38,356 nt of DNA from Elainella sp. Prado103. GTDB lineage: Bacteria > Cyanobacteriota > Cyanobacteriia > Elainellales > Elainellaceae. Positions within the stretch are counted from its first letter, which is position 1, and each line of letters opens with the position of its first letter. The stretch is from NCBI GenBank assembly GCA_025454395.1, contig JALOOM010000074.1, positions 1 to 38,356 of the forward strand. Direction: 5' to 3'. Below are positions 11,485 through 35,653 of this stretch, piece by piece. The notes under the pieces are model-generated. The model saw only the letters and a list, made by a program, of their open reading frames with translations, ran no database searches and had not been told where the DNA came from. Position numbers and translations under genes: made by a program.

Positions 11485-11931
11485 GTGTCCTGTGGTGTTT
11501 ACAAAACCATTAGTCAGACTCTCAAAGCATTTCAGATTGTTTACACAGAAGCTAATTTTATTGTAGAGGCTCCGTTTCAAGTCTCCGACTATTTTCGGGA
11601 AGATTTGCAGTTGATGATGCGAGACGGAGTCGTGGATAACTCTGAGTTCGCGATCTGCGAGAATTTGATCTATCCCATCCTGAAAGAAGTGTGGAAGCTC
11701 TATCGCAGCAAGTTTATTTTGTGGAGTTATCAATCCCTGAATTGCGATACCGATCTCTGCGGTTTTCCAGAATATATCCTGGGGCGAACCCTTAGTCTAA
11801 GCAAGACGAACTGTACGGGCATGACCCAAATCCCTGCCAGTCGTTCAACCCACTGCTTCAACCGACCACTTCAACCCACTGCTTCAACCGATCGCTCCAA
11901 ACAGGGGCATCATCGGATCGAGGGTCAATAA
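11485..11931 (+). pseudogene. Truncated remnant of a cyanobacterial conserved protein (nuclease-like family)
   Basis: A GTG at 11485 is preceded by GGAGAAG at a good distance. It opens a protein (MSCGVYKTISQTLKAFQIVY onward) that reads like the N-terminal half of a roughly 200-residue cyanobacterial family: YFREDLQLMM, NSEFAICENLIYPILKEVW, FILWSYQSL and GFPEYILGR. From memory, the complete proteins continue with a catalytic-looking LLVEAK-type strand. Here similarity ends near 11810 and the rest of the frame is unrelated, running through a 13-bp tandem repeat and antisense into the next gene by 48 bp. I read it as a 3'-deleted gene, possibly non-functional. The antisense open frame at 11329-11733 is less protein-like. 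Confidence 0.55.
11844..11895. repeat. Stop-anchored 13-bp tandem array, 4 copies
   Basis: Four 13-bp units (11844, 11857, 11870, 11883), plus-strand form TTCAACCCACTGC or TTCAACCGACCAC/GATCGC. Read on the minus strand, every unit carries TGA, and the first one supplies the final codons and stop of the TIGR03032 gene. Units 1 and 3 are identical, so a 26-bp duplication of a 13-bp dimer is also possible. Confidence 0.88.
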
Positions 11932-12969
11932 CCGGGCAATCTCATCGGTTTGAAAGCCGATCGCCATCGGACGTTTCACATTGGGCAGCACCTGCACATC
12001 ATAGAGTTCAGTCACAACGCCTTCCAGTTTGAGCCAATGGGCAATGCTGCCGATATTGAGATCAATCACTAACACACCACAAAAAGGATCAGACTGTTTT
12101 TCGATCAGCCGATCCTCCAACTCCAGTCCCGAAAAGGTCTTGTCGTTGCTACGCGGTTTTGACAGTCCGACGATCGCATAGTGTTGCCAAAACGCGAGTC
12201 CACGCAGATAGCCAGGGGCAAACACAACGGGTTCAAACTCGCCATTTTTCAGATCCAGGTAGCCAAAATCTCCAACCCCCGAATTGAGAAGCCACAGCTT
12301 ATTTTGATACCACCGAGGAGAGTGGGGCATGGAAAACCCCTGCAAAATGACTTCATTCGTCTTCAGATCGATCACACAACCACCATTGCGTCGTCGATCG
12401 CGCCAGCCATCCACCACATCCGAGCGACTGCAAGCCGTGACATAGGCGGGTTGACCATCTACCATCGCCAAGCCGTTCAGGTGACAGCGATCCTCATTGA
12501 CCAGCTTGGAGATAAACGGTGGTTTCCACAGGGGCGTACAGCTATTTTGCGCACTGACGGTAGCCAAACAGTTGAGCAAACTGCTGACAAAAATGATTCG
12601 TCCTGTTTGATCTACCACCAGATCATGCACATCCAGATCGCCGGTGGTGTAGCCGATCCGAGGAATATAGAGCTTGTCAAACTCGTTGTAGCGCTGATCG
12701 TCTGTCAGGACATTGTCGAGCTGCCAGATCTGGTATTTGGAGCTGAGCCAGAGGCGATCGGTGGTGGCATATAGCCCCATGGCCCGATCGAAAATGCGCT
12801 CAAACCCAGAAATCCGGCTGGCGTGAGTGCCCAGTAACAGCAATCGCGACGACTGGTAGGTCGTGAGTCCCAAGCTCAAATTTTCGGACATCATCCAGTC
12901 GAGGAAATACCGCGAGGCGTAGACCTCCAACGGCAGATTAGCATTGGCGGGTGCTACGGGCTGACTCAC
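11884..12969 (-). CDS. TIGR03032 family protein (DUF4915-like)
   Basis: A 361-residue protein recognised as TIGR03032 by features such as NLSLGLTTYQSSRLLLLG, DRAMGLYATTDRLWLSSKYQIWQL (split), DLDVHDLVVDQTGRIIFVSSLLNCLATV (split), CHLNGLAMVDGQPAYVTACS and MPHSPRWYQNKLWLLNSG. The fold is probably a beta-propeller; no reaction is known. Relatives often occur beside exopolysaccharide or secretion genes and TPR proteins, but none is adjacent here. The start is GTG at 12969 with AGGAG eight bases upstream. The stop lies inside a 13-bp tandem array. Confidence 0.88.
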   Translation of the reverse strand: MSQPVAPANANLPLEVYASRYFLDWMMSENLSLGLTTYQSSRLLLLGTHASRISGFERIFDRAMGLYATTDRLWLSSKYQIWQLDNVLTDDQRYNEFDKLYIPRIGYTTGDLDVHDLVVDQTGRIIFVSSLLNCLATVSAQNSCTPLWKPPFISKLVNEDRCHLNGLAMVDGQPAYVTACSRSDVVDGWRDRRRNGGCVIDLKTNEVILQGFSMPHSPRWYQNKLWLLNSGVGDFGYLDLKNGEFEPVVFAPGYLRGLAFWQHYAIVGLSKPRSNDKTFSGLELEDRLIEKQSDPFCGVLVIDLNIGSIAHWLKLEGVVTELYDVQVLPNVKRPMAIGFQTDEIARLLTLDPMMPLFGAIG

Positions 12970-13079
12970 GACGATCGCTCCTATGGCTCAAATATGATTA
13001 GATTGAACGCAATCTGACTCACCGATCCCATCTGGCTCATCGATCGATATGCGCCCGATCCGGCACAACGCCTCACCCA

Positions 13080-13661
13080 TTAGCCAAAATAATCGGGGGC
13101 ATGGCCGGGTTTCCACTTAATGTTGCAGCCAATGCTAGGTTGCTGTTTCTCGTCGATCGGTTGACCTGCGAGCAAGGCATCGATCGCCGTCCGCAAATCC
13201 TGGCCGGTCACGGGTTGATCGTTGCCAGGACGGGAGTCATCCAATTGACCGCGATAAACCAACTGCCGATCGCGATTAAATAAGAAGAAGTCGGGCGTGC
13301 AAGCTGCGGTATACGCCTTAGCAATCGCTTGGCTGGCATCGTAGCAGACTGGGAAGGGAAAGTGAAGTTCAAGTGCCATTTCCTTGAGCCGATCGGGAGC
13401 ATCGTCGGGATAGTGGTCGGCATCATTGGCACTGATCGCCACAATACCCAAGCTGCGATCCTGATAATCTTGCCCAAGGCGAGCGAGTTCATCCTGGACA
13501 TGCTTGACAAACGGACAGTGCCGACAAATAAACATCACTAACAGTCCGTCACTGCCTGCGAACCGAGCCAGCGAAATCATCTCGCCGGACACCACATCGG
13601 GCAACTGGAAGTCGGGGGCGATCGTGCCTAGGGGCAACATGGTGGAAGCAACTCTGGCCAT
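13080..13661 (-). CDS. Thioredoxin-like protein, AhpC/TSA-type
   Basis: A 193-residue thioredoxin-fold protein starting MARVASTMLPLGTIAPDF, with an FICRHCPFVKHVQDEL active site (Cys46-Arg-His-Cys49), AISANDADHYPDDAP and the cis-Pro strand AACTPDFFLFN. It is probably a cytosolic thiol oxidoreductase or peroxiredoxin-like protein of a family common in cyanobacteria. The terminal IGCNIKWKPGHAPDYFG tail is conserved in this family. ATG at 13661 has GGAAAAA upstream; a start at 13697 would add 12 residues that do not look conserved. It is divergent from menD over about 100 bp. Confidence 0.88.
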   Translation of the reverse strand: MARVASTMLPLGTIAPDFQLPDVVSGEMISLARFAGSDGLLVMFICRHCPFVKHVQDELARLGQDYQDRSLGIVAISANDADHYPDDAPDRLKEMALELHFPFPVCYDASQAIAKAYTAACTPDFFLFNRDRQLVYRGQLDDSRPGNDQPVTGQDLRTAIDALLAGQPIDEKQQPSIGCNIKWKPGHAPDYFG

Positions 13662-13764
13662 CGATTTTTCCGGTTGAAATTTACGACTGAGATTCACTAC
13701 TTAAAACTATAGCGAGGGGGAACCGGCAAGCGAGAATAAGAATTGCTCCAATTTCGATGGCTGC

Positions 13765-15663
13765 ATGATGGGTTTGTTTGATTCGACTGATTTGCCTGAC
13801 TTGCCTGATTCAATTCATCTGCCTGATTCAATTCATCTGCCTGACTTGCCTGATTCGCCTGGTCTGCCTTCCGGGTCCGAAGTGGCTCGGCTCCTGTGGC
13901 AGAATGTCAACACCATTTGGGCGACGGTGCTGGCAGAAACCCTCTATCGTCTGGGGGTTCGATCGGCCATGGTTTGTCCAGGTTCGCGATCGGCTCCGCT
14001 AGCGGTGGCGTTTGCCCTCCATCCTGGCATTGAGGCCCTGTCTATGCTAGACGAGCGATCGGCAGCGTTTTGGGCGATCGGTTTAGCACGGCAAACCCAG
14101 CAGCCGGTCGCCTTGGTCTGCACTTCTGGCACGGCCGGAGCCAATTTTTATCCAGCCGTAATTGAAGCTAAAGAAAGTAAGGTGCCGCTGCTGATTTTGA
14201 CGGCCGATCGCCCTGCTGAACTGCGTGACTGCAACGCGGGGCAAACGATCGATCAGCAGAAACTCTATGGCAGTTTTGTCAATTGGTATAGCGAAACCAC
14301 CCTACCGGCGCTGGATCTGGAGTTACTCAGCTACTTCCGCCAAACTGTTTTCTATGCCTGGGAGCGCACCCAGTTTCCGGTGGCGGGCCCGGTGCATCTG
14401 AACTTGCCCTTCCGCGATCCACTCGCCCCGGTTCCCCAACCCGCAGCCCTGGAGTTTGCCACCCGCTTTCCCACCAACTTCTTTGACTTGGTGATTCCTC
14501 CGCCGATCGCCACCCCGATCGCCCCTTTCCCGACTTTGCCAAATTCTGAGCGGGGGCTGATTATTGCCGGTTTAGCCCAGCCTCGATCGCCCCAGACTTA
14601 TTGCCAAGCTATCTTCAACTTGGCCAAGTTGCTGCGCGTTCCCGTTTTGGCAGAAGCCTTATCACCTGTTCGCAACCAGTCCCACCTGTATCATTCTGAT
14701 CTGGCTAATTCTGCTCAGAACGATTCCACGGTTCTCATTTCCACCTACGACGCGATCCTGCGCCAGTCTGATTGGGCTGACAAGCTGCAACCCGACTGGG
14801 TGATCCGGATCGGTGAAATGCCCACTAGCAAAGTGCTCCGACAATGGCTCAAGCAAACTCAGCCGCAGCAGTGGATTATCGATCCGACCGATCGCAACCT
14901 CGACCCGCTCCATGGTGCCACCCAGCACATTCGCACCAGCATCGAATCCGTGAGTCAGCAGTTTCAGGCTGTTTTGACGATCGCACCCTCTAACGCAGAA
15001 GATTCGGCATATCTTCACCTGTGGCGATCGGCTGAAACCCAAACCCGTCAGCGCCTCGATCGCGCCTTAGCCAACCTGGAAACCTGGTTTGAGGGTAAAG
15101 TGTCCTGGCTGCTGTCGCGGCACTTACCGATCGAAACCCCGCTATTTGTAGCCAGCAGCACGCCGGTGCGGGATATGGAATTTTTCTGGCAGCCGAATTC
15201 TCGTGCCATTCAGCCCTACTTCAACCGGGGGGCAAACGGCATCGATGGTACTCTCTCCACGGCCCTCGGCATTGCCCATCGTAACCGCAGCAGCGTTTTA
15301 CTAACCGGCGATCTGGCCCTACTGCACGACACCAACGGTTTTTTAGCCAGCCGCCAGTTGGTCGGTCATTTAACGATCGTGCTAATCAATAATCAGGGCG
15401 GCGGTATTTTTGAGTCTTTACCGATCGCTCAATTCGATCCACCCTTCGAGCAGTTTTTCGCTACCCCGCAGGCGATCGACTTTCAGCAACTTTGCCAAAC
15501 CTACGGGGTAGACTATGTGCGAATTGAGTCCTGGGCGCACCTGATCAATTGTCTTGCTCCATTGCCCAGCCAAGGCGTGCGAGTGCTGGAAGTGCAGTGC
15601 GATCGAAAAGCTGATGCCCAGTTTCGCCGGGAGTTGTTGATGAGGATAGGGGAGAACCTCTGA
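13765..15663 (+). CDS. menD: 2-succinyl-5-enolpyruvyl-6-hydroxy-3-cyclohexene-1-carboxylate synthase
   Basis: A ThDP-dependent enzyme that joins isochorismate and 2-oxoglutarate in the naphthoquinone route, giving phylloquinone for photosystem I in cyanobacteria. Signatures are CPGSRSAPLAVAF, LVCTSGTAGANFYPAVIEA, LTADRPAELRDCNAGQTIDQ, RGANGIDGTLSTALGIA, LTGDLALLHDTNGF and INNQGGGIFE. The 632 residues include an unusual N-terminal stretch of about 35 residues built of LPD and DSIHLP repeats, encoded by a short repeat at 13783-13865. The family-like sequence starts near WQNVNTIWATVLAETL. An in-frame GTG at 13882 after the repeats could be the true start, which would make the repeat a leader. 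Confidence 0.94.
   Translation: MMGLFDSTDLPDLPDSIHLPDSIHLPDLPDSPGLPSGSEVARLLWQNVNTIWATVLAETLYRLGVRSAMVCPGSRSAPLAVAFALHPGIEALSMLDERSAAFWAIGLARQTQQPVALVCTSGTAGANFYPAVIEAKESKVPLLILTADRPAELRDCNAGQTIDQQKLYGSFVNWYSETTLPALDLELLSYFRQTVFYAWERTQFPVAGPVHLNLPFRDPLAPVPQPAALEFATRFPTNFFDLVIPPPIATPIAPFPTLPNSERGLIIAGLAQPRSPQTYCQAIFNLAKLLRVPVLAEALSPVRNQSHLYHSDLANSAQNDSTVLISTYDAILRQSDWADKLQPDWVIRIGEMPTSKVLRQWLKQTQPQQWIIDPTDRNLDPLHGATQHIRTSIESVSQQFQAVLTIAPSNAEDSAYLHLWRSAETQTRQRLDRALANLETWFEGKVSWLLSRHLPIETPLFVASSTPVRDMEFFWQPNSRAIQPYFNRGANGIDGTLSTALGIAHRNRSSVLLTGDLALLHDTNGFLASRQLVGHLTIVLINNQGGGIFESLPIAQFDPPFEQFFATPQAIDFQQLCQTYGVDYVRIESWAHLINCLAPLPSQGVRVLEVQCDRKADAQFRRELLMRIGENL
13783..13865. repeat. Short in-frame repeat at the 5' end of menD
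   Basis: Two kinds of unit alternate: the 9-bp block TTGCCTGAC/TTGCCTGAT and the 18-bp block ATTCAATTCATCTGCCTG, present twice in tandem. Both are multiples of 3, so the frame is kept and the product is a run of LPD and DSIHLP residues. If translation begins at the downstream GTG at 13882, the repeat is untranslated. Confidence 0.8.
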
Positions 15664-25905: not shown

Positions 25906-25951
25906 AAACTGCACCGACTAAACTGCACCGATCAATCTAAACTGCGCCAGA
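25906..25951. repeat. Stop-anchored repeat at the 3' end of the AlkA-like gene
   Basis: On the minus strand three units follow one another: GCGCAGTTTAGATTGATCG (19 bp, containing the last four codons and the TGA), GTGCAGTTTAGTCG (14 bp) and GTGCAGTTTAGACTGATCG (19 bp). The C-terminal codons of the gene are thus duplicated downstream of its stop. Confidence 0.85.
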
Positions 25952-26567
25952 GATACCAAGAGGCGATCGTGCGATAGGGCTGCCAGGGTTGACCGATTTG
26001 CAGCAGGGCTTGCTTCGTTGGTTTCTCTGGCAGGTGATAGAGTTGGCAAATGGCTGAGCGAATCCCCAAATCATCTAGTGGCAACACATCCCAGCGATGC
26101 AGCCGGAAAATCAGCAGCATTTCCACAGTCCAGCGGCCAATCCCTTTGACTTGCGTTAAAGTCTGGACGATCGCTTCATCTTCCCAGGTTGTGAGAATTT
26201 CTAGCGGGGGAAATTCGGGAATCTTGGTGGCCAAATCTTTCAGATAAATAATTTTGGGACGAGAGATTCCCACCGATCGCAGTTGCTCTTCAGAGGTCTT
26301 GAGGATTGCGGCGGCTGTGAGAGGTTTGCCGTCATAGAGCTGCAAAAAACGCCGATGGATCGCCGCTGCGGCCTTGCCCGAAAGCTGTTGGTAAAGGATC
26401 GACTCTACCAGTGCTGCCAGCAAATCACCCGACTGTTGTTCCTGTCTGAGGGTGCATGGCCCCACTCGATCGATCAGAGATGCCAGACCGGGATCAGCTC
26501 GTAAATGGTCGATCGCCTGGTCATAATTCGGCGCTAGAGAATTAAAGTCTGCCATCGGTATAGACAT
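25932..26567 (-). CDS. DNA-3-methyladenine glycosylase 2 family protein (AlkA-like, HhH-GPD)
   Basis: A 211-residue base-excision repair glycosylase. It has the ESILYQQLSGKAA helix, the LRSVGISRPKIIYLKDLA segment, the helix-hairpin-helix VKGIGRWTVEMLLIF, and the catalytic Asp in LPLDDLGIR at residues 165-166. These proteins remove alkylated purines such as 3-methyladenine. It lacks the E. coli AlkA N-terminal domain, as is usual in this shorter group. ATG at 26567 is taken; ATG at 26555 is also possible. It is divergent from the DUF2075 gene with a 233-bp gap where I see no gene. Confidence 0.9.
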   Translation of the reverse strand: MSIPMADFNSLAPNYDQAIDHLRADPGLASLIDRVGPCTLRQEQQSGDLLAALVESILYQQLSGKAAAAIHRRFLQLYDGKPLTAAAILKTSEEQLRSVGISRPKIIYLKDLATKIPEFPPLEILTTWEDEAIVQTLTQVKGIGRWTVEMLLIFRLHRWDVLPLDDLGIRSAICQLYHLPEKPTKQALLQIGQPWQPYRTIASWYLWRSLD

Positions 26568-26790
26568 GTAGGCGGAAGATACTGAGAGCAACGTATCCTG
26601 ACGACATACTGAAGAAAGCAGCTAGTTAATTTGTACTGCTTGGTCTATCATGCCGCAAAATGAGGCTACTCAACCTATTTTCCCAATGGCTCTATTTTCC
26701 CAGATGACGCGCTTCACGCCGACTCGTTCACATTCAACCCCCAGCTTGTCGCTCGCCCCTGTTGATGCATGATGTTTCATAGGTTCCACA

Positions 26791-26820
26791 ATGATTCACA
26801 ATGATTTACGATGATTTACG
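26791..26820. repeat. 10-bp triplicate over the start codon of the DUF2075 gene
   Basis: Units ATGATTCACA, ATGATTTACG and ATGATTTACG each begin with ATG. Only the second ATG (26801) is in frame with the gene; the first reaches TGA within eight codons. Further ATG codons in other frames may lower initiation. Confidence 0.88.
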
Positions 26821-29062
26821 ATTGCCCCTGCGATGGGGATGGATGGGTCAGATCCGCGATTTTTTGGCTTTGCCGATCGAGCAGTGGTTAACCCAACTGA
26901 AGGACAATTATCAGCAACTCTATCAACAACGATCTGCCCCCACCCAGCAACAAGCCTGGCAAGACTGCGGCCAGATCTGTCAGCAACAATTACAACGCCT
27001 TGTCCAAACCCGATCCGAGAGTCAGGATTGGTTGTTGATTTTTGAATATGAATTGTTGCGAGAAGGAGGGCGACGACCCGATTTAGTGTTGTTAGCAGGC
27101 GATCAAATTTTGGTCTTGGAATTTAAGCAAAAAAGCAAGCCGAGTCCGGCCGATCTGGATCAGGTGGCAGCTTACGGGCGTGATCTGTCCGAATATCATC
27201 AAGCCTCCCAAAGATATACGGTCACACCGCTGCTGGTGCCGACCCGATCCCAAACTCAGTTCATGAGCGGACAAGACGATCGCTCCGGTGTGCAGATTCT
27301 CAGTCCGAGTCAGTTAGCCGCTTATTTACAGCAGTTACCCGTCGGCAGTCCGGCGATCGATCCAGTGCGTTGGTTAGCTTCAGCCTATGCACCCCTGCCC
27401 AGCATTGTACAAGCAGCCCGCACCCTGTTTCAGCATGAACCCTTACCGCAGATCAAACGAGCTGAAAGTGCTGGAATCTCTGATTTATTGAATTATCTGT
27501 ATGGGCTAGTCGATCGGGCAAAAGCCAAGCAGCAGCGCCATCTTGTTTTGATCACAGGCGTACCCGGTGCCGGAAAAACTCTCGTAGGTTTGCAGTTCGT
27601 TTATGGATCGGATATCGATCAACAAGTGATTACCCAGCCTATTCATCAATCTATGACTAAGTTAATTGATCAATCGATCGATCAATTCAAAGAGCCGCCT
27701 GATCAATCATCAATCAGTTCGTCTATAAACCCGTCTACTAATTCTTCTATTAATTTATCTATTAACTCGTCCATCAATTTGCCTATCGATCAATCAACGA
27801 ATCTGCTTGTTGATCAGTCTACTCAAGCGACCATTCAAGAAACTCTCCAAACGACCATTCAAAACTCTGAAAAATTGGTTGAAGCGTCTGATTCTGCTAC
27901 TGCATCACCCCACCACGCAGCTATTTTTCTCTCGGGCAATGGCCCACTAATTAGCGTCTTGCAATACGCCTTAAAAAGCAAAGTCTTTGTGCAAGCGGTG
28001 CGTAATTTTTACCTGCAATATGAGCTGCGCAGTCAAAGCCCGCCACCAGAGCACATCATCGTGTTTGATGAGGCCCAACGCGCCTGGGATGCCGATCGCA
28101 TGGCAGATAAGTATGGCATTGCGGGATCCGCCACCGAGGTCGTTTTACGGATCGCAGCGCGAATTCCAGACTGGTGTGTCGTTGTAGGGTTGATTGGTGA
28201 AGGTCAGGAGATTCATATTGGTGAAGAGGAAGGTTGGGAACAGTGGCATCAGAGCTTGCTGAAACCGACTGCAACTTGGCAAGTCCATGGTGCACCCGGA
28301 CTGGCTGAGGTTTTCCCTGATTTTCCTGCCGATCGGCTTCATCTTCATTCCCGCTTCAACCTCACCACTTCATTGCGTTCTCATCAAGCCAGCCATTTAC
28401 AAACCTGGGTTAGTGATCTCCTGGCAGGAAAACTGACTGCTGCTGCCGATCGGATGGCATCCTTACGAGAGCAGGGATTTGATGCCTATGTCACGCGAGA
28501 TCTGCAACAGGCTCAGCAGTACTGTCGCGATCGGTATTGCTCCGATGGGGAAGATCGCGATCAGGAACCTCACGATCGGGAAAGTTACGATCAGGAACCT
28601 CACGATCGGGATCTTGCCGTTACTGCCAACAAAAATGCTTCAGCTCGCTATGGTCTGATTGCCTCCTCACGGGCTCGTAATCTAAGCCGCTATGGCATTC
28701 CCAACGACTATCGAGCAACCGCCAAACTGAATGTCGGAGCTTGGTACGTTGATCCCCCCGATTCGCCTAAATCTTGTTGTGCTTTTCAGCGTGCCGTCAC
28801 CGAGTTTGGTTGTCAAGGATTGGAACTCGATTTCCCGATCGTCGGTTGGGGGGATGACCTACGCTGGCAAAATGCTGCCTGGATCAGCCCAGTGCGACAA
28901 CGCCATGCTAAATTTCCTCTGCGGCTGCGGCTTAATAGCTATCGCGTGTTACTGACCCGAGGCAGAGATGGCTTGATCGTGTTTGTGCCACCCGAAGCCC
29001 AAATGGATGAGACTTATGCCGCGCTTTGCCAAGCAGGCTTGACCGATTTACAGGACGGTTAA
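26801..29062 (+). CDS. Nuclease-like plus DUF2075 helicase-type ATPase with low-complexity insertions
   Basis: A 753-residue protein. Residues about 75-145 look like a PD-(D/E)xK nuclease core: FEYELLREGGRRPDLVLL then ILVLEFKQK, with candidate catalytic Asp94, Glu107 and Lys109. The DUF2075 (Schlafen group 3-like) ATPase follows: Walker A ITGVPGAGKT at 251-260, FLSGNGPL, Walker B IIVFDEAQRAWD at 419-430 and a C-terminal LRLNSYRVLLTRGRDGLIVFV. Residues about 270-371 are an Ile/Ser/Asn/Gln/Asp-rich insertion right after the Walker A helix, and about 581-612 a second DR/QEPHD repeat insertion. Both are encoded by in-frame repeats. Nuclease-helicase fusions can be repair or defence proteins; the role here is inferred. 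The start lies in a 10-bp triplicate. Confidence 0.85.
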   Translation: MIYDDLRLPLRWGWMGQIRDFLALPIEQWLTQLKDNYQQLYQQRSAPTQQQAWQDCGQICQQQLQRLVQTRSESQDWLLIFEYELLREGGRRPDLVLLAGDQILVLEFKQKSKPSPADLDQVAAYGRDLSEYHQASQRYTVTPLLVPTRSQTQFMSGQDDRSGVQILSPSQLAAYLQQLPVGSPAIDPVRWLASAYAPLPSIVQAARTLFQHEPLPQIKRAESAGISDLLNYLYGLVDRAKAKQQRHLVLITGVPGAGKTLVGLQFVYGSDIDQQVITQPIHQSMTKLIDQSIDQFKEPPDQSSISSSINPSTNSSINLSINSSINLPIDQSTNLLVDQSTQATIQETLQTTIQNSEKLVEASDSATASPHHAAIFLSGNGPLISVLQYALKSKVFVQAVRNFYLQYELRSQSPPPEHIIVFDEAQRAWDADRMADKYGIAGSATEVVLRIAARIPDWCVVVGLIGEGQEIHIGEEEGWEQWHQSLLKPTATWQVHGAPGLAEVFPDFPADRLHLHSRFNLTTSLRSHQASHLQTWVSDLLAGKLTAAADRMASLREQGFDAYVTRDLQQAQQYCRDRYCSDGEDRDQEPHDRESYDQEPHDRDLAVTANKNASARYGLIASSRARNLSRYGIPNDYRATAKLNVGAWYVDPPDSPKSCCAFQRAVTEFGCQGLELDFPIVGWGDDLRWQNAAWISPVRQRHAKFPLRLRLNSYRVLLTRGRDGLIVFVPPEAQMDETYAALCQAGLTDLQDG
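27608..27860. repeat. In-frame low-complexity expansion inside the DUF2075 gene
   Basis: A stretch rich in imperfect GATCAATC, AATTCTTCTATT and TTATCTATTAAC-type units encodes the ID/QS/SSIN-rich insertion after Walker A. It is AT-richer than the flanking gene. The related proteins I recall need only about 10-20 residues here, so nearly 100 are extra. Confidence 0.65.
28556..28615. repeat. 30-bp in-frame duplication in the DUF2075 gene
   Basis: A 30-bp block containing GATCAGGAACCTCACGATCG occurs twice in tandem (about 28558 and 28588), encoding the repeated DQEPHDR motif. It contains the CGATCG HIP1 core. Confidence 0.75.
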
Positions 29063-29179: not shown

Positions 29180-30196
29180 TTAGAGCGAATCCATTAAGGC
29201 TTGAATTCTAGACACGAGTAAAGGATTATCAATCTGCTGCACCAGGGAATGGGCATGACGATAGCAATCCTGAGCTTGTTTTTTATTCAAGACTCCGGCA
29301 TGGAGGCTACCCATGTTGATCAAGATGGCAATTTCACCAGGTCGATCGCCCAAGGCTTGATAGTGGATCAACGCCCGAACATAATGCTGCAATGCCTGGT
29401 CGAAATGACCGAGTTGAGCGTAGGTGTAGCCTAAGTTCTGGAATGTCACCGCTTCCCCATGACGGTTGTGGATCGCCTGATGAGTCAACAAGACTTGATG
29501 ATAGGTGAGCAGCGCATGATTATACTCGCCCACATCTCCGTAAGCAGTAGCCAGGTTATTTAGAGTAGTAGCTTCCCCAGCCACATCCTTCACCGCCTGC
29601 TGGATGGCACGAGCCTCACGAAAATAACGGATCGCTTGCTCAATTTGCCCCAATTTGCTGTGAGCACAGCCAATGCCGTTCAGGGTGGCCGCCTCACCAG
29701 CAAAATCACCCAATAAGCGCCGCATCGATAAGACTTGATGATGTAACAGGAGCGATCGATTTTGCTCCCCTTGATCAGCATACAGCAGGGCAATTTGGTG
29801 GATCGCGGTTACTTCACCGGATAAATCTTGCAAGCTTTGATACAGCGATCGGGCTTGTTGGAGCAGATGCAAGGCCTGAGATAACTGCCCCAAATGGCTG
29901 TACGCCGACCCTAAATTGAGTAAGGTGGCGGCGATCGCGGGCTGATCTGAACTGGCTTCCGCTAAACAGTGCGCTTGATGCAAAAATTCCAAAGCCTGCT
30001 GAGGCTGCCGACAGCTTAAATAGGCCAAGCCTAAATCGTTCAGAGCGATACGTTCTCGCGAGTGATCATTGAGGGTGCGAATCAATCGTAGATTTTCCCG
30101 CGCTAAATCTAAAAATACGTCAAACTGTTTGTGTTGGTAATAACGATTGGCTTCTCGACGACGCTGCTCCCAGGCAGCTAGATCAACAGCATTCAT
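29180..30196 (-). CDS. Tetratricopeptide-repeat protein
   Basis: A 338-residue soluble protein made of about seven to eight TPR units with a period near 40, for example IAATLLNLGSAYSHLGQLSQAL, GEAATLNGIGCAHSKLGQIEQAI, GEATTLNNLATAYGDVGEYNHAL and GEAVTFQNLGYTYAQLGHFDQAL. The repeat spacing is the kinesin-light-chain/NPHP3-like type common in cyanobacteria. It has no catalytic domain and no signal peptide, so it is probably a protein-interaction scaffold. It is divergent from tenA; the 322-bp gap 30197-30518 contains only a short AT-rich repeat. Confidence 0.88.
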   Translation of the reverse strand: MNAVDLAAWEQRRREANRYYQHKQFDVFLDLARENLRLIRTLNDHSRERIALNDLGLAYLSCRQPQQALEFLHQAHCLAEASSDQPAIAATLLNLGSAYSHLGQLSQALHLLQQARSLYQSLQDLSGEVTAIHQIALLYADQGEQNRSLLLHHQVLSMRRLLGDFAGEAATLNGIGCAHSKLGQIEQAIRYFREARAIQQAVKDVAGEATTLNNLATAYGDVGEYNHALLTYHQVLLTHQAIHNRHGEAVTFQNLGYTYAQLGHFDQALQHYVRALIHYQALGDRPGEIAILINMGSLHAGVLNKKQAQDCYRHAHSLVQQIDNPLLVSRIQALMDSL

Positions 30197-31737: not shown

Positions 31738-31763
31738 TTACAATTCGACTTTACAATTCGATC
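31738..31763. repeat. Stop-anchored 13-bp duplication at the end of the NB-ARC/WD40 gene
   Basis: On the minus strand TCGAATTGTAAAG is followed at once by TCGAATTGTAAAA. The first copy carries the last codons (Glu, Leu) and the TAA stop of the gene; the second repeats the stop in another frame. Confidence 0.88.
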
Positions 31764-34700
31764 GCACCTAACAACTTCAGGGTAGATTTTTGAGCTGCCG
31801 TTAGACCCGTTACGCCGGTTAAATTGAGTCCTTCATAAGGGCGATCGGACTGCAACACCTGAATGGTTTGGGGTAATCTGCCCTGCTGGGTCACTTCCGG
31901 GAACGACCAGAGCCGGATCATTTCATCTTCGCTACCCGTTGCCAAATATCGATCGTCGGCGCTAAATCGTAGGGTTTGCACGGCTTTCAGGTGATCATCT
32001 AAACACCCAATCAGGGTTTGAGTGGAGGCATCCCACAAGGACACTTGATGGTTGCTACCCCCGATCGCCAACAGACCGGCTGAATTAAAGTCAAGGGTGA
32101 GTACCCGTCCCACAGCAGGCGCGAGTTCAACCCCCTGACCGCTCTGATCTAGATGGGTGAGATCCCAGAGTCTAACTGTCTCGTCATGGCTACCACTGGC
32201 TAACAGGGAACCATTGGGATGGATAGCGATCGTTTGTACAGGTTTTTGATGTCCTTGCAATACTTTCAGACAAGTTCCTGTTTGAATCTCCCAGATTTGC
32301 ACGCTACCATCTTCATTGCCAGTAAATATCCATTGATCATCTAGACTGAAGGCAATCGCAAACACTCGACCGGCATCTCCCGAAATAACTGCCCTGCATT
32401 GTCCAGAAACCCATTCACTGGTGCGACCGGCCGATCGTCGTCCGACGGATTCATCAGCAGTCAACAGAGATTTAGCTTCCCAGAGTTTCACTTCACAATC
32501 GCCACTATTGGTTGCCAGGTAATCTCCGCTGGGGCTAAACAGAACAAGACGCACCGCTCCGGTTTGACCGCGTAGCGTTTGCACGCAGCGAGGCTCCCCT
32601 TCCCGATCCACCTGCCAGAACCGCACCGTCTGATCATCGCTCCCACTGGCTAAGATGCGACCGTCTGGACTGTATGCCACTGACCAAATGCGCCCCTGAT
32701 GCCCTGCCAATTCATGTAAGCAGTGACCCGTATTCACCTGCCACAACCGGACTTTGCGATCCTCATTACCGCTGGCAAGCTGCGCTCCATTGGGGCTAAA
32801 ATCAACCGACCAAACCCAGTTGTTATGCCCCTTTAAGGTTTTGAGGCAGCGGCCGGTATCCACCTCCCAGAATTTAATGGTTTGGTCGTCACTGCCACTG
32901 ACTGCCGTTTTGCCATCGGGGCTAAAATGCACGGTGAGGACGAGACCACTATGGCCTGTAAAGCTACGGATCGGCTCATCGGTATGAATTTCCCACAGCC
33001 GCAGTCGATCGTCACTACCGCTCAGCAAAAACTGACTATCGGGGCTAAAGGCGATCGACCAAGTACGGCTGCCATTCTCCAGCCAGCGCCAACATTCTCC
33101 CGTCTGCACCTCCCAAATCCAGAGCATCGGATCATCTCCCGCCGTCGCCAACCATCTGCCATCCGGGCTAAAGGCGACCGATCGCACCCCCCCTAAATGA
33201 GAGAGAATCTGCACCGAGCTGGTTGGGAGATGCCATACATGAACACTGCCATCAGCGCTACCGGCCGCCAACCGTTGCCCATCGGGAGAAAAGGCAATCG
33301 TACGAACCCCTCCTGCTGGTACCGCCAGGGTTTGGAGACAGTCTCCCGTTTCCAGATCCCAGAGTTTAACGGTGCCATCCTCGCTACTACTCGCTAACTG
33401 TGGCAAGGTTGGATTGAATGTAACTGTGTAGACCCAATGAGTATGACCGGCTAATTCTCGCAAACATTCTCCCGTTTCCACGTCCCACAGACGAATCATT
33501 TGATCCTCACTGCTACTAGCCAGAATTTGGCTATCCGGACTAAAGGCAACCGACCAACCCCATTGAGCCCGATCGCCCCGACAAGTAAACAGTTGCTTGC
33601 CATCACTCGCTTGCCAGAGACACAGCTCTCCTTCCGCATCACTGGAAGCGACCAATTCCCCATTGGGACTAAAGGCGACCGCAAGAATGCTACCCAGGGT
33701 TTGGGCAAACACCGATCGGGAGATATCTGACTGGGAAAAGTCTACTCCATGCAGCGGTACATCCTGTAAATAAGCTTGCCAGATCGCCAGATGGGAAAAG
33801 TTGCGATCGGTCAGATCAGTGCCCAACTGACGAAATAGATTCAGAATATTGCCGACAGCATAGCCTGCTGCGGTTTGATAATCTTCCTGGAGTTGTTCAA
33901 CAATTTGTGTCAAATGATGCTCTAATTCCTTACGGCTACGATAGGTCTGGGAAAGTCGATCAATCAGGGGTTGGAGAATCAGTCGGATTTGACTTTCTCG
34001 GACATAGTCTTTGATCGGTGCTTTGATTAAGGCATGGCGAATCAGCAGATCAAACTCGCCACCGATCATTTCCTGACTGATCGCATCAATCAGCCGCTCC
34101 GTCACATATTCCATAATCACCGGCTGTTGGGTGTAAGCATTCACCGTTTTATCAATTAATGATCGCCAGCGTAGATTGCCGATCGCATCCATCAGCTTTG
34201 ATTTGGTGACTGCCGGAAGTAGGTCAGCTTGCAATTCCGGAATAGTGATCGGCTCTCGGTGGATTGCCAACCAATGCATGATTCCCTGTTCCAATTGGGG
34301 TAACCGATCAAATTGTTGTTGTAGTAAATAACGAATATCTTCAAAAACGGTGGTACCTTCTGCTAAAAATTCAGCAATACTACCGTCAAAGAGTTCCTGG
34401 ATTGTGGTAGCCACCACTTTTAAGGCCAAAGGATTACCGGCATAGCAACGGGTCAGTTGTTGCCACTGGTCTGGACTGCCGCTAAACTTGCCCTTAGCTT
34501 TGAGAATCTGGCGAGCTTCGGCTTCCGTAATGCCGCTCAATCGTAAAGCCCGCACAGGAGCCGTTGCTCCCTCGATCGCCATTAGTCCCTTCGGACTTTC
34601 ACGACTGGTGATCAGTAAACAACTCTGATGCGGCAATTCAGCCAAACGTTTGAGAATTTCGCCATATCCCTCATATTCGGGGTAGAAGAAACCAGAATAT

Positions 34701-35653
34701 TCCCCGCTCCGTAGAATGGTTTCTGCGTTGTCTAAAATTAGCAAACAACGGGTCGATCGCAGGATTTGCACCAATAGGGTTAGCAGGGGGTTGAGTTCGG
34801 TGGGCAACTCAATTTCCGTGCTCTGATTGGTGTTCTGGATACTATTCAAAATACTATTCTGATCAGCATTCTGATTGGTGCTCTGATTAGTATTCTGCAT
34901 CAGCGATCGGAGCCAGTCTCGCAACATCTCAGGAGGCGAAGGTGCATTTCGCAAGGAGCGCCAGACAATAAACTGAAAGCTGGACGCATCGGTAGATCGC
35001 GATTCGACAAGCTGTTGGGCAGATAGTTGGGCAAACTGTTGAGCCCACTTAACCGTCAGTGAAGTTTTGCCGATCCCGCCCATTCCCAAGACTGAGATGA
35101 CTCGACAGCGATCGGTGACAGCCCACTGAGTCAGAGTTTCTAGTTCTGTGTCCCGACCATAAAAAGTAGAGACATCGATCGCATCTCCCCAGTCGCAAAC
35201 TGCGGGGTAAACCGAGGGATAAACTGAGCGATCGAGGGGCGGGGCAGAGCCGATCGATGAGGAGCCAGCAGGCAGTGGTGTCGAAGAATCAGCCCGATCG
35301 ATTACAGTCGAGGTATCGCTTCCACCTGATGGTTCTGGCATGCCACTAGACGACAGGATCGGTGCCACTGGGGGGCGAACTGGAGTACGAACTGGGGGGT
35401 GATTTTGTTGATAGCGCCTCAAAACCGCTTGAATATTATTCTTGGTTACTTTTTCGTTCAGCTTACTGGATAGTAATTTCCAGAGCTTTGATCCAACATC
35501 TTTGATATATCCCGTATCATACCCTGCGGCTTCTGCAATTTCGGCATAGGTTTCCCCTGTCCAGCAGCGTCGAAATACAATCTCCTGCACATCACTGAGG
35601 CAGTCTTGCTGCAATATCTGATCGAGAATTGCCAATGCTTCTTCTACTGTCAT
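31751..35653 (-). CDS. HTH / NB-ARC / WD40-repeat STAND protein
   Basis: A 1300-residue receptor-like protein. Residues 1-85 form the helix-turn-helix domain of the vWA-MoxR-associated (vMAP) type (VEEALAILDQIL, YAEIAEAAGY, KDVGSKLWKLLS). Residues 86-160 are a Pro/Ser linker. NB-ARC follows, with Walker A GMGGIGKTS at 190-198 and Walker B CLLILDNAE at 303-311. From about 650 to 1270 there are 14 WD40 repeats, enough for two seven-blade propellers. An Asn/Gln/Ser-rich run of 27 residues (253-279) splits the NTPase domain. Such STAND proteins act as ligand-triggered switches; an immune role is plausible but inferred. It is a monocistronic-looking gene. Confidence 0.92.
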   Translation of the reverse strand: MTVEEALAILDQILQQDCLSDVQEIVFRRCWTGETYAEIAEAAGYDTGYIKDVGSKLWKLLSSKLNEKVTKNNIQAVLRRYQQNHPPVRTPVRPPVAPILSSSGMPEPSGGSDTSTVIDRADSSTPLPAGSSSIGSAPPLDRSVYPSVYPAVCDWGDAIDVSTFYGRDTELETLTQWAVTDRCRVISVLGMGGIGKTSLTVKWAQQFAQLSAQQLVESRSTDASSFQFIVWRSLRNAPSPPEMLRDWLRSLMQNTNQSTNQNADQNSILNSIQNTNQSTEIELPTELNPLLTLLVQILRSTRCLLILDNAETILRSGEYSGFFYPEYEGYGEILKRLAELPHQSCLLITSRESPKGLMAIEGATAPVRALRLSGITEAEARQILKAKGKFSGSPDQWQQLTRCYAGNPLALKVVATTIQELFDGSIAEFLAEGTTVFEDIRYLLQQQFDRLPQLEQGIMHWLAIHREPITIPELQADLLPAVTKSKLMDAIGNLRWRSLIDKTVNAYTQQPVIMEYVTERLIDAISQEMIGGEFDLLIRHALIKAPIKDYVRESQIRLILQPLIDRLSQTYRSRKELEHHLTQIVEQLQEDYQTAAGYAVGNILNLFRQLGTDLTDRNFSHLAIWQAYLQDVPLHGVDFSQSDISRSVFAQTLGSILAVAFSPNGELVASSDAEGELCLWQASDGKQLFTCRGDRAQWGWSVAFSPDSQILASSSEDQMIRLWDVETGECLRELAGHTHWVYTVTFNPTLPQLASSSEDGTVKLWDLETGDCLQTLAVPAGGVRTIAFSPDGQRLAAGSADGSVHVWHLPTSSVQILSHLGGVRSVAFSPDGRWLATAGDDPMLWIWEVQTGECWRWLENGSRTWSIAFSPDSQFLLSGSDDRLRLWEIHTDEPIRSFTGHSGLVLTVHFSPDGKTAVSGSDDQTIKFWEVDTGRCLKTLKGHNNWVWSVDFSPNGAQLASGNEDRKVRLWQVNTGHCLHELAGHQGRIWSVAYSPDGRILASGSDDQTVRFWQVDREGEPRCVQTLRGQTGAVRLVLFSPSGDYLATNSGDCEVKLWEAKSLLTADESVGRRSAGRTSEWVSGQCRAVISGDAGRVFAIAFSLDDQWIFTGNEDGSVQIWEIQTGTCLKVLQGHQKPVQTIAIHPNGSLLASGSHDETVRLWDLTHLDQSGQGVELAPAVGRVLTLDFNSAGLLAIGGSNHQVSLWDASTQTLIGCLDDHLKAVQTLRFSADDRYLATGSEDEMIRLWSFPEVTQQGRLPQTIQVLQSDRPYEGLNLTGVTGLTAAQKSTLKLLGAIEL
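34817..34897. repeat. In-frame repeat inside the NB-ARC domain
   Basis: Imperfect units around ATTCTGATTGGTGTTCTG (plus strand) encode the QNTNQSTNQN-type low-complexity segment between two conserved NB-ARC parts. The length stays a multiple of 3. Confidence 0.75.

What the first reader, a model, noticed from the sequence alone, without database searches (positions are those of the whole stretch)
26801..29062. Nuclease-DUF2075 protein split by low-complexity insertions
A PD-(D/E)xK-like core is fused to a DUF2075 ATPase, and about 100 extra Ile/Ser/Asn/Gln-rich residues sit directly after the Walker A helix, with a second repeat insert near 590. An insertion so close to the ATP site is unusual and could be a regulatory loop or a prion-like segment. 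The fusion type makes an anti-phage or repair role worth testing.
Basis: partly seen in the sequence, partly recalled or inferred. Interest (0 to 1): 0.6.

Follow-up and report, generated by a model that had tools for sequence, protein, structure and literature searches.

The report
Nuclease-helicase with tandem-repeat inserts
A cyanobacterial DNA-cutting motor protein of a known candidate phage-defence family has picked up two floppy repeat stretches, most likely harmless by-products of a genome that is unusually full of short tandem repeats.

Summary
ORF 26801-29062 (753 aa) joins a PD-(D/E)xK-type nuclease domain to an SF1 helicase (PF09848, 'SLFN-g3_helicase', formerly DUF2075) and carries two low-complexity inserts, aa 270-372 and 583-615. 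It matches PADLOC 'PDC-S41', a phage-defence candidate. None of 27 aligned homologues (25 distinct) has either insert; they have 4-18 and 4-6 residues there. Catalytic residues and helicase motifs are intact, and AlphaFold leaves most of both inserts at pLDDT <50. The inserts are decayed tandem repeats. In 400 kb sampled, this genome has 59 arrays per 100 kb, against 1-32 in four relatives. Inside ORFs 53 of 59 arrays have periods divisible by three; intergenic arrays show no preference. Another protein in this window has a similar insert that 8 of 8 aligned homologues lack. I read the inserts as tolerated in-frame expansions in surface loops, not a conserved regulatory loop or prion domain. 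Defence is plausible for the wider family (restriction genes in 6 of 9 scanned contexts), but this gene's neighbours look like housekeeping genes.

The parts
26801..29062 (+). PD-(D/E)xK nuclease - SF1 (SLFN-g3/DUF2075) helicase, PDC-S41-like, 753 aa
27080..27127 (+). Nuclease catalytic signature D94 ... E107-x-K109
   Evidence: invariant in 27 of 27 aligned homologues; on or next to strands 95-99 and 102-109
27161..27175 (+). Q121-x3-Y125, the QxxxY motif (name recalled) of RecB/Cas4-type nucleases
   Evidence: invariant columns
27557..27580 (+). Walker A GVPGAGKT (aa 253-260)
27608..27916 (+). Insert 1 (aa 270-372), Ser/Ile/Gln/Thr-rich, period 4/12/24 bp, in the variable loop after the Walker A helix
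28064..28087 (+). Walker B FDEAQRAW (aa 422-429)
28547..28645 (+). Insert 2 (aa 583-615), 15/30-bp repeats
28799..28831 (+). TEFGCQGLELD (aa 667-677), helicase motif V-like (name recalled)
28934..28972 (+). NSYRVLLTRGRDG (aa 712-724), helicase motif VI-like (name recalled)
25932..26591 (-). HhH-GPD DNA glycosylase, divergent neighbour; a relative is next to the gene in G017 (L133) and G003 (L139)
29180..30196 (-). TPR protein, neighbour shared with G017 (L133)

Best explanation
The gene encodes an ATP-driven SF1 helicase/translocase fused to an N-terminal RecB/Cas4-like PD-(D/E)xK nuclease. It most likely moves along DNA and cuts it, working like Dna2, AddAB or the helicase-nuclease DruE of Druantia III (inferred). 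The two low-complexity stretches arose in this lineage when short tandem repeats (a TCAA/GATC-like tetramer giving a 12/24-bp unit; a separate 15/30-bp unit) expanded inside two surface loops. They then decayed by point mutation while selection kept the reading frame open. They are tolerated, disordered passengers of a genome-wide tendency to make tandem repeats, with no demonstrated role. Shown: the inserts are absent from the homologues seen, periodic and mostly predicted disordered, and the genome is repeat-rich with an in-frame bias in coding DNA. Inferred: the slippage origin, the neutrality and the enzyme activities.
For: No insert in 27 of 27 aligned homologues, nor in the same-genus copy of G003, which was left out of that alignment because its frame is broken. 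DNA periodicity. 236 arrays in 400 kb of own genome outside the window (59 per 100 kb, 3.4% of bases) versus 11, 15, 1 and 32 per 100 kb in four family members, the last of the same genus. Coding arrays 53 of 59 in multiples of three, intergenic 55/65/54 by period mod 3, 27 straddling arrays set aside. pLDDT <50 over 272-286, 288-337, 356-371 and 581-615 with the flanking core folded; a natural insert-less homologue folds with nearly the same elements, mean pLDDT 81.6. A second protein of the window has an NQS-rich insert missing from 8 of 8 aligned homologues, and an ORF elsewhere in the genome has a 12-bp repeat peptide of like kind (L105). Root-to-tip distance of the core, 6.90, lies within the clade's 6.53-7.12. 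Insert 1 is open in the coding frame while the other two frames of that strand hold stops.
Against: Peptides this rich in S, I, N, Q and T are not commoner in this genome than in relatives: 3 of 272 ORFs outside the window plus 2 of 28 in it, against 5 of 284 in four relatives, so the excess is in DNA arrays, not in such peptides, although the two window cases score highest (25 of 30 against at most 23). The terminal branch is long (0.62, median 0.15), which could mean relaxed or changed selection. Only one genome carries the inserts, so neutrality cannot be tested by variation. TCAA-type sites (up to 2 mismatches, overlapping matches counted apart) are modestly raised: 41, second of 36 family genomes behind one with 46. 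The own-genome sample came from six contigs, all on the list of TCAA-type matches.
Confidence: 0.8

Rival explanations
1. Insert 1 is a functional regulatory loop (or prion-like segment) that modulates ATP binding from beside the Walker A helix.
For: It begins 10 residues after the P-loop, stays open over 103 codons while the two other same-strand frames hold stops, and predicted helices 280-295 and 339-365, the latter with block pLDDT up to 61, hint at residual structure.
Against: Absent from 27 of 27 aligned homologues, pLDDT mostly <50, made of repeats in a repeat-rich genome, lies in a loop of 4-18 variable residues, and Q+N is only 20 of 103.
Confidence: 0.08
2. The gene is an active anti-phage effector in this cyanobacterium, as its PDC-S41 label suggests.
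For: PADLOC PDC-S41 match at 3.3e-127; distant relatives lie near restriction genes in 6 of 9 scanned contexts; patchy distribution, 27 of 388 class genomes at E <= 1e-40.
Against: Window neighbours are housekeeping-type genes; of 10 window ORFs scanned at 1e-20 only two matched PADLOC models, TPR and HEAT-ARM_XIII, which I take as repeat-domain look-alikes. Of 9 fetched family-f16 loci, 8 sit by a sigma-70 and a Fur gene. Among 108 neighbours only MzaA, of the 25 of 79 matched families shown, matched more than 2 (8). PDC means candidate, and no paper in the library names PDC-S41.
Confidence: 0.35
3. The gene is a DNA-repair or replication-fork nuclease-helicase, perhaps domesticated from a mobile defence ancestor.
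For: Conserved gene order in family f16 (8 of 9 fetched loci), on contigs of 5.7-6.3 Mb in three of them; divergent pairing with a HhH-GPD glycosylase in 3 of 8 f1 loci (window, L133, L139); SF1 fold close to UvrD and AddAB by VIA and to Dna2 by Foldseek.
Against: Gene order is patchy outside f16: 5 of 8 f1 loci lack the glycosylase, and only 2 of 4 f13 loci share neighbours around the gene. No match in 361 of 388 class genomes, so not essential; two relatives (G003, G018) have frame-disrupted copies; no repair phenotype known. My odds were 0.4 before I recounted these loci.
Confidence: 0.36
4. The gene is decaying and the inserts mark loss of function.
For: Long terminal branch; frame-disrupted copies in G003 and G018.
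Against: All catalytic and helicase motifs are intact, the ORF is open through both inserts, and root-to-tip distance is ordinary.
Confidence: 0.1

Closest known systems
PADLOC PDC-S41 (phage defence candidate)
   Same: Match in three stretches (E 3.3e-127); nuclease plus helicase architecture; invariant catalytic residues.
   Different: About 31% identical to the model-like members L065 and L066, which score above 900 bits against 423.5 here; two private inserts; neighbourhood without restriction genes.
Vertebrate group III Schlafens (SLFN11, SLFN14, SLFN5)
   Same: Helicase domain in the Pfam family named for them (PF09848); top Foldseek hits for both models (E 1.2e-7 and 5.3e-10, TM-scores 0.26-0.33); VIA Z 18.5-19.3 for SLFN11 entries 7zel and 7zep.
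   Different: No Schlafen core RNase domain; SLFN11 showed no ATPase activity in PMC9482658 (passages); the N-terminal half here carries intact PD-(D/E)xK residues.
AddAB / Dna2 / UvrD-type SF1 enzymes
   Same: SF1 motor; with AddAB and Dna2 also a RecB/Cas4-like nuclease (recalled). AddAB entry 4cei chain B Z 18.7, rmsd 3.9 over 309 residues; UvrD Z 20.6, rmsd 3.7 over 317; Dna2 5eaw Foldseek E 4.2e-5.
   Different: A single chain of about 630 residues without the inserts; no partner subunit known.

Membership tests
PF09848 SLFN-g3 (DUF2075) helicase | HMM score above gathering cut-off | tested here: met
   186.4 bits against cut-off 24
PF09848 SLFN-g3 (DUF2075) helicase | Intact Walker A and B and C-terminal SF1 motifs | tested here: met
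   Invariant or nearly invariant columns in T252-T260, F422-W429, T667-D677, N712-G724
PDC-S41 | Whole-protein HMM match | tested here: met
   3.3e-127, 423.5 bits in 3 stretches; model-like members score 921 and 983 bits
PDC-S41 | Demonstrated or neighbourhood-supported phage defence | tested here: inconclusive
   6 of 9 scanned distant contexts have restriction genes; the window does not
PD-(D/E)xK nuclease (RecB/Cas4/HSDR_N-like) | D...ExK plus QxxxY with alpha-beta-beta-beta-alpha order | tested here: met
   Residues invariant; order H47-76, E78-81, E95-99, E102-109, H116-132, E140-147
PD-(D/E)xK nuclease (RecB/Cas4/HSDR_N-like) | Match to a named family model above cut-off | tested here: inconclusive
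   Only below cut-off: HSDR_N 0.022 for the window domain and 7.3e-5 (23.1 bits, cut-off 25.1) for L155, NERD 0.009 (L155), PDDEXK_9 0.026 (L162); 4 of 10 domains matched nothing. PADLOC Cas4 0.021
PD-(D/E)xK nuclease (RecB/Cas4/HSDR_N-like) | D94, E107, K109 cluster in three dimensions | not testable with these tools
Prion-like domain | Long Q/N-rich disordered segment with aggregation behaviour | tested here: inconclusive
   Mostly low pLDDT but Q+N only 20 of 103 and Ile 13 of 103; no prion predictor run, aggregation not testable

The most novel reading that the evidence does not exclude
Bacterial PDC-S41 proteins may show where the C-terminal half of vertebrate group III Schlafens came from: an ancestral PD-(D/E)xK nuclease fused to an SF1 helicase, in which the nuclease half lost its active site and became the Schlafen 'linker domain'. 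The cyanobacterial clade would be a chromosomal branch with the nuclease still intact.
Probability: 0.2. Interest if true: 0.6.

Novelty: new member of a known kind. Interest (0 to 1): 0.3.

Why it matters
The inserts are a clear case of how tandem-repeat expansion can add about 90 disordered residues next to an ATP site without destroying conserved motifs, and they caution against reading lineage-specific low-complexity loops as regulators. The genome-wide pattern (in-frame bias in coding DNA only) is a natural experiment in tolerance of insertions. The family itself links a restriction-associated bacterial nuclease-helicase with the motor half of Schlafens.

Tried and rejected
Prion-like or regulatory loop: not supported (see rivals). 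Mobile element, intein or intron as the source of insert 1: I saw only periodic low-complexity sequence; no dedicated search was run. A repeat seed in homologues: the linkers of G031 and G023 (L067, L068) read QTSIDQ with a GATCGATC core, a possible seed, but these are other genera, so I treat it as coincidence. A single-sequence PDB search with the nuclease domain gave no match at E <= 5. A profile search of the whole protein (A4) gave weak matches to Schlafen 5 and 11 (0.015 and 0.53), from the P-loop to Walker B. The VIA rows span mainly the helicase, so a missing nuclease fold there is no evidence. 'DUF2075' with nuclease and phage defense, and with Schlafen, gave no paper; 'DUF2075' alone gave 5 papers with one mention each, judged unrelated from the listing and not read; 'PDC-S41' gave none. 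PDC as 'phage defence candidate' was read in passages of PMC11514479. PMC1913061 (passages) does not hold COG3410. PMC12839542 passages concern Schlafen RNases. DruE as a helicase-nuclease comes from the listed abstract of PMC13192584. Short tandemly repeated sequences in cyanobacteria are known: I saw one title in the reference list of PMC4748335.

Controls and dropped rows. In the four relatives 21 of 22 coding arrays also have periods divisible by three and the intergenic classes are 14/6/8, so the coding bias is general and only the load is special. L089 (G003) was left out of the alignment because its frame is broken; L090, L087 and L088 were left out of the tree; L177 fell out of the alignment because no P-loop pattern was found. 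Distant contexts: 18 loci were fetched (L153-L170), neighbours of 9 were checked (L153, L159, L160, L162, L164, L166, L168, L169, L170), and not every neighbour of each. I chose proteins partly because their first residues looked like restriction genes, so 6 of 9 leans upward. L159 and L164 gave no PADLOC hit for the 2 proteins scanned in each, L170 only SoFic; L166 was judged from its public annotation. Of the others, L154-L157 and L163 resemble each other closely, and L167 and L170 lie on two plasmids of one strain. In one search only 25 of 79 matched families were shown; that the eight MzaA matches are the sigma factors is inferred from their number. Of 12 f16 genomes with a match, 9 neighbourhoods of this clade were fetched. 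ORFs are mechanical (ATG, at least 120 or 100 aa).

Full report
What is there. The ORF at 26801-29062 on the + strand is as described. It matches Pfam PF09848, now named Schlafen group 3 DNA/RNA helicase domain, at 1.2e-54, and the PADLOC model PDC-S41 at 3.3e-127 in three stretches. PDC stands for 'phage defence candidate' (passages of PMC11514479); no paper in the library names PDC-S41. The nuclease half has the D94...E107-x-K109 signature, invariant in 27 of 27 aligned homologues, plus Q121-x3-Y125, invariant in 12 of 12 rows that include distant viral-contig members. Family models for PD-(D/E)xK nucleases match only below cut-off, and 4 of 10 nuclease domains tried matched nothing.

The inserts. 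In 27 aligned homologues (25 distinct, since L064/L088 and L062/L087 are the same loci) the loop after the Walker A helix has 4-18 residues and the second loop 4-6; here they have 103 and 33. The copy in G003, the same genus, has a broken frame and was left out of that alignment, but its translation also shows neither insert. So the first insert enlarges a loop that varies anyway, at the far end of the Walker A helix, and does not interrupt the ATP site. Insert 1 has strong DNA periodicity at 4, 12 and 24 bases and insert 2 at 15 and 30; 0 of 2000 codon shuffles reached any of these five values. In the AlphaFold model of the window protein (mean pLDDT 72.7) the segments 272-286, 288-337, 356-371 and 581-615 are below 50; residues around 341-350 reach a block mean of 61. 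A natural homologue without inserts folds with mean pLDDT 81.6 and nearly the same elements.

Why they are there. Tandem arrays (TRF score 50 or more) occur at 60 per 100 kb in the window and 59 per 100 kb in 400 kb sampled elsewhere in the genome, covering 3.4% of bases. Four family members, 100 kb each, have 11, 15, 1 and 32 per 100 kb; the last is of the same genus. The own-genome sample came from six contigs, all on the list of TCAA-type matches, so its density could be somewhat overstated. Within ORFs, 53 of 59 arrays have a period divisible by three; among 174 intergenic arrays the classes are 55, 65 and 54, with 27 straddling arrays set aside. In the relatives 21 of 22 coding arrays are likewise in multiples of three (14/6/8 intergenic), so the bias is general and the load is what is special. 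That is what selection against frame shifts leaves when arrays arise everywhere. A second protein of this window (31751-35653, a STAND-like P-loop protein with WD40 repeats by my reading) has an NQS-rich insert before its Walker B strand that is absent in 8 of 8 aligned homologues, and another ORF of the genome has a DQS/NQS 12-bp repeat (L105).

Results that do not favour this. S/I/N/Q/T-rich peptides as such are no commoner here than in relatives: 3 of 272 ORFs outside the window and 2 of 28 in it, against 5 of 284 in the four relatives, although the two window cases score highest. TCAA-type sites with up to 2 mismatches are modestly enriched, 41 matches, second of 36 genomes. The terminal branch is long (0.62 against a median of 0.15), though the root-to-tip distance is ordinary.

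What the protein probably does. Both models find human SLFN11 first in Foldseek (E 1.2e-7 and 5.3e-10; low TM-scores, 0.26-0.33). By VIA the motor matches UvrD (Z 20.6, rmsd 3.7 over 317 residues), SLFN11 (Z 19.0, rmsd 3.9 over 290) and AddAB entry 4cei chain B (Z 18.7, rmsd 3.9 over 309). A DNA-translocating nuclease is the natural inference; no activity is shown. Distant relatives sit near restriction genes: type I methyltransferase and specificity genes (L153); AIPR, DUF4420 and a C5 methyltransferase (L160); a type II methyltransferase (L162); McrC with an AAA ATPase and DNA methyltransferases on a plasmid (L166); a type IV restriction enzyme directly upstream, with McrBC and type I genes (L168); and Vsr with a Z1 helicase-like gene (L169). 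That is 6 of 9 scanned contexts out of 18 fetched, with a choice of proteins that leans upward. The window differs: its neighbours are housekeeping-type genes, and of 10 of its ORFs scanned at 1e-20 two matched PADLOC repeat-type models, TPR and HEAT-ARM_XIII. In the cyanobacterial clade 8 of 9 fetched f16 loci share a sigma-70 and a Fur gene beside it, while order is patchier in f1 (glycosylase in 3 of 8) and f13 (2 of 4 alike). Among 108 neighbours in 20 loci, of the 25 of 79 matched families shown only MzaA matched more than 2 (8). The gene is present in 27 of 388 genomes of the class at E <= 1e-40, and two relatives carry frame-disrupted copies, real or assembly errors. I therefore put repair or fork processing (0.36) and active defence (0.35) level; before recounting the f1 and f13 loci I had 0.4 for repair.

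Schlafen lead. In VIA the insert-less model aligns to SLFN11 over model 26-613 and chain 404-899 (369 residues, rmsd 8.3), beyond the 280 residues of the motor alone, so the nuclease half may correspond to the Schlafen linker, described as of unknown function in PMC8789055 (passages). The rmsd is high, Z does not rise (19.3 in both), and the profile search does not reach the linker, so this is a lead only. A search for papers with Schlafen and nuclease-fold terms listed 15 of 39, none with this idea in title or shown abstract; they were not read for it.

Verdict. The surprising part, the insert by the ATP site, is best explained as an in-frame tandem-repeat expansion in a repeat-rich genome, and the protein is a new member of a known candidate defence family.

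Noticed in passing
window 31751-35653 (-), repeat at 34822-34897: STAND-like WD40 protein (by my reading) with an NQS-rich low-complexity insert just before its Walker B strand, absent from 8 of 8 aligned homologues.
   Followed up: yes
whole window and own genome (L093-L112): Very high load of short tandem repeats (59-60 arrays per 100 kb, about 3.4% of bases), with in-frame bias only inside ORFs.
   Followed up: yes
models of window:26801-29059 and L064:5941-7845 against SLFN11/SLFN14: The structural match to Schlafens extends from the helicase into the linker domain, hinting that the linker could be a degenerate PD-(D/E)xK domain.
   Followed up: partly
L089 (G003) and L090 (G018): Homologues in two related draft genomes have disrupted frames, by mutation or assembly error.
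   Followed up: no
L160, L166, L168, L169: Distant homologues lie in restriction or Mza-like loci (AIPR/DUF4420/C5 methyltransferase, McrBC, type I and IV, Vsr/Z1), good candidates for defence assays.
   Followed up: partly
L164 (G050) 11816-13906: NB-ARC protein two genes from a model-like PDC-S41 member.
   Followed up: no
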